Source of the DNA: a virus | IMG/VR virus record: IMGVR_UViG_3300012271_000010 | Location: 1-64,000 of that record | Length of the DNA: 64,000 bases | Reading direction: 5' to 3' (one strand) | Shown: positions 1,710 through 14,392 of the stretch, piece by piece | Position numbering within the stretch: the first letter of the stretch is position 1 | Layout: each line of letters opens with the position of its first letter | Made by a program: the position numbers and the translations under genes | The notes under the pieces: model-generated | Seen by the model: only the letters and a program-made list of their open reading frames with translations | The model's database searches: none | What the model was told of the DNA's origin: nothing

Positions 1710-1961
1710 ATGAAAAGATGGTTAGTGACAGGAACGAATGAAAATGGTTTTATCTGGGTACTTGAATTTGTTGGCGACGAAAAACCAAATCGCGGGAGGA
1801 TAAATCACGCGTTTGCTTCGGAATATCCAGAACAATGGGAATTCGAACCAGAGATTAGAAAAATAAAAATTCGTGAGTTTACCGACGCCCCACCACACGC
1901 CACTCTTGGTCTTTCGCTTAAAAAAGGATTTAATTTAAATGGAGAAGAAATAGAATATTAA
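1710..1961 (+). CDS. Hypothetical 83-residue protein
   Basis: Small, soluble, mixed-charge protein (MKRWLVTGTNENGF at the N terminus). No motif was recognised. It has its own promoter (P2) and an AAAGG ribosome site, and is followed 5 bases later by tRNA-Asp, so gene and tRNA probably share a transcript. Coding is supported by the promoter-start geometry and the uninterrupted frame; function is unknown. Confidence 0.75.
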   Translation: MKRWLVTGTNENGFIWVLEFVGDEKPNRGRINHAFASEYPEQWEFEPEIRKIKIREFTDAPPHATLGLSLKKGFNLNGEEIEY

Positions 1962-1966
1962 AATAC

Positions 1967-2042
1967 GGTTATGAGTTGCGGATGGCGAGCAGCTTCATTG
2001 TCAATGAAATGGTAGTCGGTTCGATTCCGACCATGACCGCCA
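1967..2042 (+). tRNA. tRNA-Asp(GTC)
   Basis: Acceptor GGTTATG/CATGACC; anticodon loop TTGTCAA gives GTC; T arm GTCGG-TTCGATT-CCGAC; discriminator G, as expected for Asp; CCA encoded. Length 76 nt. Confidence 0.93.
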
Positions 2043-2066
2043 GTCGTCCTGTCAACTCTGATATAT

Positions 2067-2087
2067 ATCATATTTAGAAAATATGAT
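2067..2087 (+). repeat. 9-bp AT-rich hairpin
   Basis: ATCATATTT and AAATATGAT form a perfect 9-bp stem with an AGA loop. No T-run follows, so it is not a clear terminator. It lies just upstream of the multi-helix RNA at 2110. Confidence 0.55.
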
Positions 2088-2109
2088 TAAGAGATTTTGT
2101 AAAAAGACA

Positions 2110-2256
2110 GGACAGGTAAAGAAGGTTCGCGACAGTCTTAGTAAGACGAAACGAAAGTCAGGAAAAGACTGCCTTCTTTACCAGGGACACGATGTAACAA
2201 CCGCCAAGTGGTGTGTCCTGGGTAATGCTAGTAGTTACAGAAATATGAGTCTGTCC
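2110..2256 (+). ncRNA. Multi-helix structured RNA, family unknown
   Basis: Outer helix GGACAG (2110-2115) with CTGTCC (2251-2256) encloses three arms in series. The first is GTAAAGAAGG (2116-2125) with CCTTCTTTAC (2172-2181), continued after a one-sided 7-nt bulge by CAGTCTT (2133-2139) with AAGACTG (2165-2171). The second is CAGGGACAC (2182-2190) with GTGTCCTG (2213-2220), one bulged G. The third is GTAA/TTAC (2222-2238). The first arm abuts the second without a gap, as expected for stacked helices in a four-way junction. It is not recognisable as RNase P, 6S or a group I intron. It sits between tRNA-Asp and a tRNA-like gene. The open frame across it is not convincing as protein. Confidence 0.6.
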
Positions 2257-2265
2257 AAATTGGGG

Positions 2266-2342
2266 GCGCCGCACGCATGCAGCGGTAGGAGCTTTCGAAT
2301 ACTCCATGGTTAAGTTAGGTTCGAATCCTAACAGGCGCACCA
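2266..2342 (+). tRNA. Imperfect tRNA-like gene, possibly tRNA-Arg(TCG)
   Basis: The 77-nt element has a perfect T arm (TTAGG-TTCGAAT-CCTAA), five acceptor pairs (GCGCC with GGCGC), ACCA and a D-loop-like AGCGGTA. The last two acceptor pairs fail, the D stem is poor, and the anticodon stem GGAG/CTCC holds a 10-nt loop containing TTTCGAA. TCG (Arg) is the best anticodon reading but is not secure. Confidence 0.5.
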
Positions 2343-2421
2343 GAGGCAGAAATATAGGTTCGAATCCTGTTGTCAACATTGTGTTGACCTCGTCTAACTG
2401 GTCAGGACGCTGCCGTTTTTT
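2343..2421 (+). ncRNA. Circularly permuted tRNA-like RNA ending in a T-run
   Basis: Parts of a tRNA occur in permuted order. First comes a 3' half: anticodon-stem strand GGCAG (2345-2349), variable AAAT, T arm ATAGG-TTCGAAT-CCTGT, acceptor strand TGTCAAC (2371-2377), A. Then TTGT. Then a 5' half: GTTGACC (2383-2389), TC, D arm GTCT-AACTGGTCA-GGAC, G, CTGCC (2410-2414). GGCAG pairs with CTGCC (5 of 5) and the acceptor strands pair 6 of 7. The permuted molecule is closed by the anticodon stem and followed by GTTTTTT, so the whole fold could act as an intrinsic terminator. No intact anticodon loop is encoded. Alternatives are a relic of a tandem duplication, or a permuted tRNA needing ligation. 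Confidence 0.7.
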
Positions 2422-2447
2422 AAACTTCTTAAAGAAAAGGAACATAA

Positions 2448-2786
2448 ATGCCTTGTAAATCAGATCATATGGAAGCAGCCTCGGATGAAACCGAATCCCG
2501 ACGACTAGCTAATTTGGTTATGTACTTGAACGATTCTCTGGACATCACTACAAGTGAAGACATTAAAGAAGCTGCACACAGTTATTACGGGAATGTTAAG
2601 ATACTAGATTCTCTAACCGCATATACGTGTGGTAAGATTAAGCGGATGGACGAAGAAACTCTAAACAGGGTAGTTTACGACGGCAGAAACCCCACCGCCC
2701 GTCAATTAGCAGATTGGTATGAGCAACATGAGGCGTTTGACCGCCGACGCTTGCGAGAAGAAAAGAGAAGAAAAGTTAGTAAATAA
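2448..2786 (+). CDS. Hypothetical 112-residue helical protein
   Basis: A charged, mostly helical protein with a basic C-terminal tail (RRRLREEKRRKVSK). Residues around ARQLADWYEQHEAFD recall an uncharacterised phage family but I cannot name it. The ATG follows AAAGGAA. The 3' end overlaps an out-of-frame zinc-ribbon-like frame at 2728. Confidence 0.75.
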   Translation: MPCKSDHMEAASDETESRRLANLVMYLNDSLDITTSEDIKEAAHSYYGNVKILDSLTAYTCGKIKRMDEETLNRVVYDGRNPTARQLADWYEQHEAFDRRRLREEKRRKVSK

Positions 2787-2865
2787 TGGAGAACCTACAT
2801 CTACAGGTTGTTACGATTGCAGAGGCACTGGTTTAAATTGTGAGAATTGTAATTCTTTAAAATAA
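2728..2865 (+). CDS. Small zinc-ribbon-like protein, overlapping frame
   Basis: A 45-residue frame starts inside the end of the preceding gene in another phase. Its second half reads GCYDCRGTGLNCENCNS: two CxxC pairs spaced like a minimal zinc knuckle and similar to the CxxCxGxG units of DnaJ. The conserved-looking half lies beyond the upstream stop. The first ATG has only a weak ribosome site, so it may be translated by coupling or a frameshift from the upstream gene. Function unknown. Confidence 0.5.
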   Translation: MRRLTADACEKKREEKLVNNGEPTSTGCYDCRGTGLNCENCNSLK

Positions 2866-2887
2866 AAAAGGTAGTAAATAATGGAGA
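2777..2887 (+). repeat. Direct repeat TAGTAAATAATGGAGA (two copies)
   Basis: The same 16 bases occur at 2777-2792 and 2872-2887. Each copy carries a potential start ATGGAGA. The second copy is just upstream of tRNA-Phe. They may mark a duplicated gene-start or spacer module. Confidence 0.6.
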
Positions 2888-2901
2888 TTGATTTTACATA
2901 T

Positions 2902-2977
2902 GGGGAGGTAGCTGATGTGGTCTTAGCATGAATTTGAAGAATTTGAGATGTTGGTTCGATCCCGACCCTCCCCACCA
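2902..2977 (+). tRNA. tRNA-Phe(GAA)
   Basis: Perfect acceptor GGGGAGG/CCTCCCC; anticodon loop TTGAAGA gives GAA; T arm GTTGG-TTCGATC-CCGAC; ACCA encoded. The anticodon stem contains two G-T wobbles. Length 76 nt. Confidence 0.92.
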
Positions 2978-2989
2978 TTAAATCATTTT

Positions 2990-3071
2990 GGCTATAGTGA
3001 ACGATGGACGTTCAGTGTCCTCATAAGGCATCGAGAAATCACCGCTGGTTCAATTCCAGCTATAGCTACCA
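2990..3071 (+). tRNA. tRNA-Met or tRNA-Ile2(CAT), G1-U72
   Basis: Acceptor GGCTATA/TATAGCT with a G1-U72 wobble; D arm GAAC-GATGGAC-GTTC; anticodon loop CTCATAA gives CAT; T arm GCTGG-TTCAATT-CCAGC; ACCA encoded. The variable region is 12 nt, unusually long. CAT may read Met, or Ile (AUA) if lysidine-modified; sequence alone cannot decide. Confidence 0.85.
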
Positions 3072-3075
3072 TTGT

Positions 3076-3164
3076 GGCGGGGCGGAGACTGTTGGATGTC
3101 TCGTAGATCTCATAAGTCTATTTCCTCATGGAAGACGCATGTTCGATTCATGCCCCCGCACCCA
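3076..3164 (+). tRNA. CAT tRNA with a class II-type variable arm
   Basis: An 89-nt gene. Acceptor GGCGGGG with CCCCGCA (position 1-72 is a G-A mismatch), a 5-bp D stem GAGAC/GTCTC, anticodon arm TAGAT-CTCATAA-GTCTA (CAT), a variable hairpin TTCC-TCAT-GGAA, T arm GCATG-TTCGATT-CATGC, then C and CCA. A long variable arm is normal for Leu/Ser/Tyr, not Met or Ile. It could be an initiator (unpaired 1-72) or a tRNA whose anticodon has changed. Confidence 0.75.
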
Positions 3165-3182
3165 TTTTAGAAAAAGAAAATT

Positions 3183-3326
3183 ATGATTTTTGTTGCTTCA
3201 CTTTTGCTCTTGACACTTCACATCGTTCCTGGTATAGTTTTTGCCGGATATACGCTGACAAGAGAAGTCGAAAATCGTATGTTATTAATTCGCAGCGGAC
3301 CAATGTCTGCTTGGTATAAGGAATAA
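3183..3326 (+). CDS. 47-residue single-pass membrane protein
   Basis: The ATG follows the AAGAAAATT leader shared by several small genes here. The first 22 residues are hydrophobic (MIFVASLLLLTLHIVPGIVF), then a charged segment with TREVENR and a C-terminal SAWYKE, consistent with an N-terminal membrane anchor and a short soluble tail. It lies between two tRNA genes. Function unknown; small phage membrane proteins often modulate host envelope or defence functions, but nothing here proves that. Confidence 0.65.
   Translation: MIFVASLLLLTLHIVPGIVFAGYTLTREVENRMLLIRSGPMSAWYKE
3210..3238 (+). promoter_or_regulatory. Possible sigma70-type promoter inside a small gene (P3)
   Basis: TTGACA (3210-3215), a 17-bp spacer and TATAGT (3233-3238) with TG before the -10. 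It lies within the 47-residue coding frame but could drive tRNA-Glu at 3334. Box and spacing are as good as the intergenic promoters; its location lowers confidence. Confidence 0.45.
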
Positions 3327-3499: not shown

Positions 3500-3574
3500 T
3501 GGAGCATCGTCTAACCGGTAGGACCTTCGACTTTGACTCGAAAAATATAAGTTCGAACCTTATTGCTCCAGCCA
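3500..3574 (+). tRNA. tRNA-Gln(TTG)
   Basis: Perfect acceptor TGGAGCA/TGCTCCA; D arm GTCT-AACCGGTA-GGAC; anticodon arm TTCGA-CTTTGAC-TCGAA gives TTG; T arm ATAAG-TTCGAAC-CTTAT; discriminator G and CCA. Its D arm and AAAT variable loop closely resemble those of the permuted element at 2343. Confidence 0.94.
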
Positions 3575-5384: not shown

Positions 5385-6314
5385 ATGTCGAAATCGTACA
5401 AACTTGTTCTATCTGGGTCTGGTACTCGTTACCCATGTTTTATTGGAGCGGTAAAACGTCTCCTGGAAGAAGGTCTTGAAATAGAAGAGGTTTGTGGGAC
5501 CAGCGGCGGTGGAATTATTGCCGCTGGTCTTGGATGGAAGTATGATAAAGAAAATCCTCTTGATTCTATTAAATTTTTAGAAGATATGGCATTATCTCTT
5601 TTACCATCTGATTTGTTAGACCCTCATTGGTTTGATTTTGCTCTATCTTTTCGATGGAAGAATCTTTTCCACGGATATAACTTCAGTCCTCTGAATTTGT
5701 TTAGAAAAAATAAAGACGTCCTTACTCTTGATCCGAAGAAAATGGTTTTGACGAGAAACACTAACGGAATGTTTAAGGGTAATAAAATTCTTAAAGTTTT
5801 AGAGAAATCGCTGCCAGAAGATCTTGAATTGAAAATTCCAGTTGTTATTACAACATTCAATAACAACTGGAGAGTGGTAGATTTTTGGAAAAGAGAGAAA
5901 GGTAACACTGGTGATTTAGCAAAATTAGTTAGAGCTACTCTTTCTCTACCGATAATTTTTGATCCTGTTATGATTGAAGGAGACTTACATTCTGACGGTG
6001 GAAATATTGCTAATTTCCCACTTGATGTTTTTGGACGAGATGCTAAAGTTATTGGGTTGACATTCGAAGGAATGAATCCAACACGAGTAGTAATTGATGA
6101 TAAACTTGATATTGCTGGAGCCAATCTAGACGGTATGATGAACGCGTCAATGGAAGAAGATATCCACGACGCCGGTCCAAACGCCCATGTTTGTCAGATA
6201 CGCACTAGACACACTGGTCTCAACCTTATGATGACTCCTGCCGACGTCGCAGAACAAATACTCGACGGATATGACAGTGTGTCCCGGTGGCTCAAAGAAA
6301 ATCCAGATCTGTAA
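5385..6314 (+). CDS. Patatin-like phospholipase
   Basis: 309 residues. The N terminus LVLSGSGTRYPCFIGAV matches the glycine-rich oxyanion region, CGTSGGGIIAAGL (about residues 37-49) is the GxSxG nucleophile elbow, and HSDGGNIANFP (about 202-212) supplies the DG half of the Ser-Asp dyad. Family members hydrolyse acyl chains of phospholipids. No signal peptide is seen, so it should act in the cytoplasm, on the inner leaflet, or after lysis. It follows a small gene by three bases. In a phage it might remodel membranes or help lysis; that is inference. Cap-type anti-defence or effector roles are alternatives. Confidence 0.85.
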   Translation: MSKSYKLVLSGSGTRYPCFIGAVKRLLEEGLEIEEVCGTSGGGIIAAGLGWKYDKENPLDSIKFLEDMALSLLPSDLLDPHWFDFALSFRWKNLFHGYNFSPLNLFRKNKDVLTLDPKKMVLTRNTNGMFKGNKILKVLEKSLPEDLELKIPVVITTFNNNWRVVDFWKREKGNTGDLAKLVRATLSLPIIFDPVMIEGDLHSDGGNIANFPLDVFGRDAKVIGLTFEGMNPTRVVIDDKLDIAGANLDGMMNASMEEDIHDAGPNAHVCQIRTRHTGLNLMMTPADVAEQILDGYDSVSRWLKENPDL

Positions 6315-11365: not shown

Positions 11366-11443
11366 GGGTTTGTAGTATAACGGATGTATTATACTCGGCT
11401 CTTAACCGATGAGATTTGGGTTCGAATCCCAACAGACCCACCA
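11366..11443 (+). tRNA. tRNA-Lys(CTT)
   Basis: Acceptor GGGTTTG/CAGACCC; an extended D stem (GTATAA/TTATAC, up to 6 bp); anticodon loop CTCTTAA gives CTT; T arm TTGGG-TTCGAAT-CCCAA; ACCA. 78 nt. Confidence 0.92.
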
Positions 11444-11446
11444 CAT

Positions 11447-11522
11447 GGGTTGTTAGTTCAATTGCGTAGAACATGTGGCTTTTAACCATTCAATCCGAGT
11501 TCGAGTCTCGGACAACCCACCA
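11447..11522 (+). tRNA. tRNA-Lys(TTT)
   Basis: Perfect acceptor GGGTTGT/ACAACCC; D stem GTTC/GAAC (loop has TGCG in place of the usual GG); anticodon loop CTTTTAA gives TTT; T arm CCGAG-TTCGAGT-CTCGG; ACCA. Three bases after tRNA-Lys(CTT). Confidence 0.94.
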
Positions 11523-11851: not shown

Positions 11852-12469
11852 ATGAGTGACAAATTACTTGGAAAAATGATCAAAGAGTTGACTGAAAACA
11901 ATATCAGTATAAAATTTGTAAACAAAAGTACTCTTGAAGATGATAGTCCAATGTTGGGGTTTTTCTGTGAATTGGATAAATTAATCGAAGTAGGAACTCT
12001 CGACGACGGCTGGTTTCAGACTTTCGCTCATGAATATTGTCACTTTAAACAGTGGAAAGATGGTCTCTTTGACGATATAACAACAATAGCTGCATATGCC
12101 ACATTAGATAATTGGGTGGACAGGAACAGAGAACTACCATCAGAAACAGTAAAGAAATTTATCCGTTGCATGCAGTTTATTGAATGGGACAATGAAAAAC
12201 GTACAATTGAATTTCTTGATAAAAACAAAATTGATTATGACAGAGAAGCTTATGTTAAGAAAGCTAACGTTTATGTTGCTTCTCATGAATTAACAAGACG
12301 TATTAGACGATGGCAAAGTAAACCATTGAGTACTGTTCCCGGAGTAAGTGATTTATTTTCAGGGGAAGAAATGATGCTAGAAAGAGATTTTGGGAATCTC
12401 CCAGAAGGTTTTGAAGCATTAGCAATTTCATCTTTTGAAGAAGTTATCGTTGAGGAAGAAGAGGATTAA
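11852..12469 (+). CDS. HExxH metallopeptidase-like protein
   Basis: 205 residues, ATG after GGAGAAGAAAAAAAC. FAHEYCHFKQW at about residues 59-69 is an HExxH zinc motif. The rest is helical, with NVYVASHELTRRIRRWQ (about 138-154) and an acidic tail. No signal peptide, so a cytoplasmic protease or a non-catalytic zinc protein. The motif context (HEYCH) differs from the HESGH protein at 8167 and the HELAH protein at 19335, so these are distant relatives rather than recent copies. Confidence 0.75.
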   Translation: MSDKLLGKMIKELTENNISIKFVNKSTLEDDSPMLGFFCELDKLIEVGTLDDGWFQTFAHEYCHFKQWKDGLFDDITTIAAYATLDNWVDRNRELPSETVKKFIRCMQFIEWDNEKRTIEFLDKNKIDYDREAYVKKANVYVASHELTRRIRRWQSKPLSTVPGVSDLFSGEEMMLERDFGNLPEGFEALAISSFEEVIVEEEED

Positions 12470-14295: not shown

Positions 14296-14315
14296 CTTAA
14301 AAAAAAGGTAGTTAT

Positions 14316-14389
14316 ATTCCAGAGCGTAGGTTGTGTCGACCGATCTCCAAAATCGTGTTGTGAGAGTTCGAATCTCTCCTGGTTTGCCA
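14316..14389 (+). tRNA. tRNA-Trp(CCA)
   Basis: Anticodon arm CCGAT-CTCCAAA-ATCGT gives CCA; T arm GAGAG-TTCGAAT-CTCTC; discriminator G and CCA. The acceptor ATTCCAG/CTGGTTT has two T-T mismatches (2-71 and 3-70), and the D stem is weak, so processing or function could be impaired. Confidence 0.8.
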
Positions 14390-14392
14390 ATT

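What the first reader, a model, noticed from the sequence alone, without database searches (positions are those of the whole stretch)
2343..2421. Circularly permuted tRNA that closes as an intrinsic terminator
All elements of one tRNA are present, but the 3' half (anticodon-stem strand, AAAT variable loop, T arm, acceptor strand, A) comes before the 5' half (acceptor strand, TC, D arm with TGG, G, anticodon-stem strand). GGCAG/CTGCC pair perfectly and the acceptor pairs 6 of 7 across a 4-nt loop. The new ends fall in the anticodon loop, and the closing stem runs straight into GTTTTTT. Permuted tRNA genes are known from some eukaryotic algae and archaea, and permuted tmRNA from some bacteria. 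I know of no described phage case, nor of one built as a terminator. Possible roles are a tRNA-shaped terminator, a stable tRNA-like decoy, or a permuted precursor matured by RNA ligation. A relic of tandem duplication is the simplest alternative.
Basis: partly seen in the sequence, partly recalled or inferred. Interest (0 to 1): 0.88.

Follow-up and report, generated by a model that had tools for sequence, protein, structure and literature searches.

The report
Permuted tRNA-shaped RNA in a phage
A phage tRNA cluster encodes a complete tRNA shape with its two halves in swapped order, and a related phage has one at the same spot with different letters but matching stems, so it looks like a kept tRNA look-alike (a kind already known from phage and bacterial Y RNAs) and not a working decoding tRNA.

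Summary
Window 2343-2421 reads anticodon-stem 3' strand, variable loop, T arm, acceptor 3' strand, 4-nt linker, acceptor 5' strand, D arm, anticodon-stem 5' strand. It is the only such hit in the window, and none appeared in 60 shuffles. Its predicted fold is this cloverleaf.

A syntenic relative (L060) has a permuted tRNA at the same place, 2 nt after the CCA of the preceding tRNA. Eight stem pairs differ on both sides and only two of 42 pair cells are broken. A second relative (L058) has Ile-tRNA-CCA-GA there and then no tRNA. The shape is therefore probably selected, but orthology of the two copies is positional only.

The anticodon is not kept: L060 lacks U33. No RNA ligase was found. The terminator reading is not supported: the T-run touches the stem only in the window.

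'No phage case' needs correction. YrlA Y RNAs are permuted tRNA mimics reported from bacteria and phages. My permuted-tRNA model hits two YrlA-like RNAs beside a Ro60-type gene, and many viral contigs carry similar elements. The window copy lacks the Ro-binding stem, any YrlA match and, in the held 72 kb, a Ro60 gene. Best reading: a YrlA-like, stem-less tRNA mimic.

The parts
2343..2344 (+). 2-nt leader 'GA' between the CCA of the preceding tRNA-like sequence and the first stem (CA in L060, GA in L058)
   Evidence: sequence
2345..2349 (+). anticodon-stem 3' strand GGCAG
2350..2353 (+). variable loop AAAT
2354..2370 (+). T arm ATAGG-TTCGAAT-CCTGT
2371..2378 (+). acceptor 3' strand TGTCAAC and position 73 (A); no CCA encoded here (L060 has A-CCA)
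2379..2382 (+). linker TTGT capping the acceptor stem (A-TTG-T extends the inverted repeat)
2383..2389 (+). acceptor 5' strand GTTGACC, pairs 6/7
2390..2409 (+). TC (8-9), D arm GTCT-AACTGGTCA-GGAC with G18G19, G26; closest to tRNA-Gln(ttg) 3500-3574
2410..2414 (+). anticodon-stem 5' strand CTGCC
2415..2421 (+). GTTTTTT tail: 3' end or remnant of a T-rich anticodon loop; not conserved in L060 (ACCATTTT)
2262..2342 (+). preceding degenerate tRNA-like sequence ending in CCA. Its 3' part matches the 3' end of tRNA-Ile of L058, and it occupies the place of intact Ile(gat) in L060/L058

Best explanation
It is a circularly permuted tRNA mimic: a small non-decoding RNA kept for its tRNA shape (acceptor/T and D arms, closed by the former anticodon stem). 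Its topology is that of the tRNA-like module of YrlA Y RNAs, but it has no Ro60-binding stem. Proposed working: it is transcribed at the tail of a tRNA run. The 3' maturation of the preceding tRNA at its CCA frees its 5' end 2 nt before the closing stem. It folds into an L shape whose acceptor stem is capped by a short loop, so it cannot be charged. It then serves as bait or tether for a tRNA-binding protein, as the YrlA module does for PNPase. Shown here: sequence, predicted fold, position after CCA in two phages, co-varying stems, shared topology with YrlA. Inferred: expression, release by tRNA processing, and binding partner.
For: Complete permuted cloverleaf as the predicted fold and beyond chance. 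A second permuted tRNA at the syntenic place in L060, with 95% of pair cells paired and 8 of 21 pairs changed on both sides, against 0-1 in slid controls. Both start 2 nt after a CCA. The anticodon is not kept: in L060 positions 32-33 read A-C. My permuted-tRNA model R1, built only from window tRNAs, finds two YrlA-like RNAs of a Puniceicoccaceae genome (35.0 and 34.4 bits), which lie about 1 kb from a TROVE/Ro60-type gene. Permuted tRNA-shaped RNAs with YrlA matches occur in many viral contigs, two of them near TROVE genes. YrlA's tRNA-like domain binds PNPase (PMC8394870).
Against: No YrlA match at the locus, no Ro-binding stem, and no TROVE gene in the held part of the genome or its relatives. 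Two copies only, about half identical over the aligned columns, so orthology rests on position, and two unrelated permuted tRNAs would show the same co-variation. L058 lacks it. The thermodynamic z-scores are modest. No expression data.
Confidence: 0.48

Rival explanations
1. Decay product: a tandem tRNA duplication lost its outer halves, leaving 3' half plus 5' half. The place is a rearrangement hot spot and L060 carries an independent relic.
For: The preceding tRNA 2262-2342 is itself degenerate, and its 3' end matches L058 tRNA-Ile. A tandem pair (Lys-Lys, 11366-11522) shows the required intermediate and scores 40.2 bits with the permuted model. L060 keeps CCA plus 1 nt as the linker, as a tandem spacer would. 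L058 has nothing there. The two copies are highly diverged.
Against: All four stems pair, and tRNA tertiary-contact bases (T8-A14, G18G19, TTCGAAT) are intact in the window. A second permuted copy sits at exactly the same distance from a CCA in L060, with 8 compensatory pairs.
Confidence: 0.24
2. A bona fide permuted tRNA gene: the ends are ligated in the anticodon loop, RNase P and RNase Z open the acceptor linker, CCA is added, and the tRNA decodes.
For: Rotated, it is called a tRNA by ARAGORN. A 7-nt loop G-U-UUU-G-A with U33 can be built in the window. L060 encodes CCA exactly after position 73.
Against: L060 has no U33 (A-C at 32-33). The loop built for the window has G at position 32, unusual for a tRNA. 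No RNA ligase of families PF09414, PF09511 or RtcB was found in the held 72 kb or above cut-off in relatives. With 2 nt between CCA and the stem there is no room for a BHB-type leader strand. A phage tmRNA points to a bacterial host, and BHB endonucleases are archaeal/eukaryal.
Confidence: 0.11
3. A 3'-end structure of the tRNA transcript (terminator or exonuclease block) that happens to be tRNA-shaped.
For: In the window, L060 and L058 the last tRNA's CCA is followed by 2 nt, a structured segment and a T-run (TTTTTT, TTTT, TTTT).
Against: The stem is 5 bp closing a loop of about 60 nt, and the consensus scan does not list it. In L060 the T-run is 4 nt away from the stem and short. The L058 segment folds no better than shuffles. 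T-rich anticodon loops explain part of the window's T-run.
Confidence: 0.14

Closest known systems
YrlA Y RNA-like RNAs (Rfam RF02553), partner of Rsr/Ro60 (TROVE, PF05731)
   Same: tRNA-like module in permuted order: T arm, acceptor stem capped by a loop, D arm, and a stem joining the RNA's own 5' and 3' ends. Found in bacteria and phages. Model R1 recognises both.
   Different: The window and L060 RNAs have no Ro-binding stem, give no RF02553 match and no TROVE gene was found. They start right at the CCA of an upstream tRNA, and the closing stem is a 5-bp anticodon stem.
[quoted passage not shown]
   Same: 3' half before 5' half, short linker joining the acceptor strands, a break in the anticodon loop in some.
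   Different: No BHB-capable leader and trailer, bacterial host implied, anticodon not decodable in the relative, no evidence of circularisation.
Two-piece (permuted) tmRNA (RF04321)
   Same: A permuted tRNA-like RNA gene in bacteria with an acceptor loop removed by tRNA processing.
   Different: No tag reading frame, no pseudoknots, a D arm with GG present. The phage has a separate one-piece tmRNA at 1127-1424.

Membership tests
YrlA Y RNA (RF02553) | permuted tRNA-like module (T, acceptor, D arms) | tested here: met
   for the locus. R1 also hits YrlA-like RNAs of Puniceicoccaceae K14.
YrlA Y RNA (RF02553) | match to the Rfam covariance model | tested here: not met
   No RF02553 match at 1900-3200 with E<=1, none in G000 at 0.01.
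YrlA Y RNA (RF02553) | long terminal stem that binds Ro60/Rsr | tested here: not met
   Only 2 nt separate the CCA from the module. The RGG-N7-CAGCAA/CCYG stem of other phage copies is absent.
YrlA Y RNA (RF02553) | TROVE/Ro60 gene in the same genome | tested here: inconclusive
   None in the held 72 kb or in relatives, but the record is a fragment.
Permuted tRNA genes (algal/archaeal) | halves swapped, acceptor strands joined by a linker | tested here: met
Permuted tRNA genes (algal/archaeal) | joined halves give a decoding anticodon loop with U33 | tested here: inconclusive
   Possible in the window; no canonical 5-bp arm with U33 in L060.
Permuted tRNA genes (algal/archaeal) | BHB motif at the junction | tested here: not met
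   Leader before the stem is 2 nt after a tRNA CCA and the trailer GTTTTTTAAAC does not pair with it (by inspection).
Permuted tRNA genes (algal/archaeal) | circular intermediate and charged product | not testable with these tools
   Needs RNA from infected cells.
Two-piece tmRNA (RF04321) | match to model, tag coding piece | tested here: not met
   No match at the locus.
Intrinsic terminator | compact G+C-rich hairpin directly followed by a T-run, kept in relatives | tested here: not met
   Not in the consensus scan. In L060 a 4-nt gap and only TTTT.

The most novel reading that the evidence does not exclude
A functional permuted tRNA gene of a bacterial virus: tRNA punctuation frees its ends, a ligase seals the anticodon loop, and RNase P/RNase Z open the acceptor linker. 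It would be the first outside algae and archaea among the papers I could search.
Probability: 0.11. Interest if true: 0.85.

Novelty: new variant of a known kind. Interest (0 to 1): 0.5.

Why it matters
If kept as a mimic, it shows that phage tRNA arrays carry permuted tRNA-shaped RNAs that are not tRNAs, missed by tRNA finders and by the YrlA family model. It suggests that the tRNA module of Y RNAs can exist, or arise, without its Ro-binding stem, and points to tRNA-like phage RNAs whose partners (PNPase, tRNA-modifying or defence enzymes) can be tested. If it is a true permuted tRNA, it extends that gene class to bacterial viruses.

Tried and rejected
1) R1 bit scores as evidence for permutation: rejected, because tandem tRNA junctions score 30-48 bits. 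2) Hits in 22 records (the window's own and relatives by baseplate protein): those in relatives turned out to be halves of ordinary tRNAs. 3) Neighbour protein 2448-2786 and exact core pattern to find relatives: nothing. The proteins at 35-316 and 5385-6314 did find them. 4) A new self-circularising element around viral permuted tRNAs (AGG-N7-CAGCAA ... CCTG): first taken as a possible novel splicing element, then recognised as YrlA-type by Rfam and TROVE proximity. 5) RNA-ligase enrichment among carriers: PF09511 in 1 of 25 records; PF09414 and RtcB were tested only in the focal group and its relatives. 6) Retained anticodon arms in viral Y-type RNAs: suggestive but not significant against exchanged strands (5 of 12 against 2.3 expected). 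7) HDV-like hit as part of the permuted unit: it ends about 90 nt upstream and precedes another tRNA in relatives, so it was left out. 8) Similar DNA in named phages: none for the locus.

Full report
WHAT IS THERE. The window is part of a 72,110-base virus record whose first 16 kb holds 20 ARAGORN tRNA genes and a tmRNA with tag ANDNIEQFAPIALAA. At 2343-2421, directly after a tRNA-like sequence ending in CCA at 2342, the order is GA, GGCAG, AAAT, T arm, TGTCAAC, A, TTGT, GTTGACC, TC, D arm, G, CTGCC, GTTTTTT. Every part of one tRNA is present once, with the 3' half first. RNAfold's best structure is exactly the permuted cloverleaf. Rotated in silico with an assumed loop, ARAGORN reads it as a tRNA.

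CHANCE. I built a covariance model (R1) from 19 window tRNAs permuted in silico. Its best window hit is 2343-2416 with 40.7 bits. The second, 40.2 bits, is the junction of the tandem Lys(ctt) and Lys(ttt) genes, so bits alone prove little. In 80 viral loci ordinary tandem junctions reach 47.6 bits. A strict descriptor that requires the anticodon stem 5/5, the acceptor >=6/7 and a D arm finds one place in the window, none in 60 dinucleotide shuffles, and 10 in 20,000 local shuffles that keep the T arm.

RELATIVES. Proteins at 35-316 and 5385-6314 led to two syntenic contigs. In L060 (IMGVR_UViG_3300009481_000013) an intact tRNA-Ile(gat) ends in CCA, then CA, then GCGGA AGAC GTTGG TTCGATT CCAAC TATCACA A CCAT AGTGATA TC GTTT AGTGGAA GGAT A TCCGC ACCATTTT. 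This is a second permuted tRNA (R1 37.0 bits; fold). On the two-sequence alignment 95.2% of pair cells are standard pairs, 8 of 21 pairs differ on both sides, and slid controls have 0-1 such pairs. The closing stem has 4 of 5 pairs exchanged. In L058 (IMGVR_UViG_3300022226_000011) a tRNA-Ile(gat) is followed by GA and a short segment without tRNA parts. The caveat is important: 35 of 70 aligned columns are identical and many of those are universal in tRNAs, so common descent of the two copies rests on position and on the 2-nt distance from CCA.

NOT A DECODING tRNA, NOT A PLAIN TERMINATOR. The best paralogue of the window copy is tRNA-Gln(ttg) at 3500-3574. The window could give a 7-nt loop with U33, but L060 has A-C at positions 32-33. 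RNA ligase families PF09414, PF09511 and RtcB are not found in the held genome part, nor above the cut-off in its relatives; these are fragments. L060 encodes CCA right after position 73, which could be a functional 3' end or what a tandem duplication leaves. The consensus terminator scan does not list the element, and L060 has four bases between stem and a T4 run.

WHAT IT RESEMBLES. With a perfect acceptor stem, a D arm and no intact tRNA, 39 candidates in 32 of 218 viral loci appear, against 4 in 119 genome loci. Many are enclosed by a stem RGGNNNN-NNN-CAGCAA ... NNNNCCYG. Rfam identifies several as YrlA Y RNA-like: full-length matches at 32-44 bits, below the gathering score 69. Ro60-type TROVE genes lie within about 1 kb of two of them (G029, G036). 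Control: the K14 genome holds YrlA matches of 63.6 and 47.6 bits, also below the gathering score, beside a TROVE gene, and R1 hits both (35.0 and 34.4 bits). So YrlA's tRNA-like module is a permuted tRNA by the same test. Literature: YrlA has a stem of paired 5' and 3' ends and a tRNA-like domain that binds PNPase (PMC8394870); Y RNAs are reported in mycobacteriophages (PMC12282133); TROVE proteins occur in jumbo phages (PMC7824862).

MEMBERSHIP. The window and L060 RNAs share the topology but not the other marks of YrlA: no RF02553 match at the locus, no Ro-binding stem, no TROVE gene in the held sequence. I therefore do not file them as YrlA. Nor do they meet the marks of algal/archaeal permuted tRNA genes (34 known by 2014, PMC3978253): no BHB-capable flanks, anticodon not conserved. 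The best label is a YrlA-like, stem-less permuted tRNA mimic.

VERDICT. The shape is real and probably selected (two copies, co-varying stems, same distance from CCA). The function proposed (bait or tether for a tRNA-binding protein, released by maturation of the preceding tRNA) is inferred. A relic of tandem duplication and a 3'-end structure remain open, and a true permuted tRNA is the least likely but most novel reading.

Noticed in passing
window 2184-2250; L060 from about 12186; L058 from about 5708: HDV-like ribozyme candidate (Rfam RF02682, 21.9 bits, gathering 44). P1 and P2 strands differ but still pair in the three phages by inspection (GGGACAC/GTGTCCT, GGGATAC/GTATCCT; TGTAAC/GTTACA, ACAAC/GTTGT). 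It fits the tRNA-associated theta ribozymes of PMC10879173, but in a tmRNA-carrying phage.
   Followed up: partly
window 2113-2183; L060 about 12140-12185; L058 about 5640-5707: A long hairpin with a TTCG-containing loop region ends exactly at the predicted ribozyme cleavage site (...A|GGGA) in all three phages; it resembles an acceptor/T-arm minihelix.
   Followed up: no
L123, L143, L155, L180, L184, L206, L207, L298 and others: Phage YrlA-type Y RNAs in tRNA arrays share RGG-N7-CAGCAA and CCYG strands; Rfam RF02553 scores them well below its gathering cut-off. One 235-kb phage contig (L143) has about six such elements in 14 kb.
   Followed up: partly
L123 +6183, L155 -6069, L184 +748, L207 +11329, L429 +1545: Some YrlA-type RNAs keep a complete anticodon arm when the break (after position 28 or 29) is joined, with U33 and an ordinary anticodon (e.g. 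Thr TGT, Asn GTT, Ile GAT). Not significant against exchanged strands.
   Followed up: partly
window 2262-2342: Degenerate tRNA-like sequence ending in CCA, missed by ARAGORN and Rfam. The anticodon arm has an enlarged loop (GGAG-CTTTCGAATA-CTCC); its 3' end matches L058 tRNA-Ile, so it may be a chimera left by a deletion.
   Followed up: partly
L058 5890-6440: About 550 nt of apparently non-coding, structured-looking DNA between two tRNA-Ala(tgc) genes, with no Rfam match.
   Followed up: no
window 14314-14391: A 78-base stretch 88.5% identical to Streptomyces phages Annadreamy and Limpid, unannotated there.
   Followed up: no
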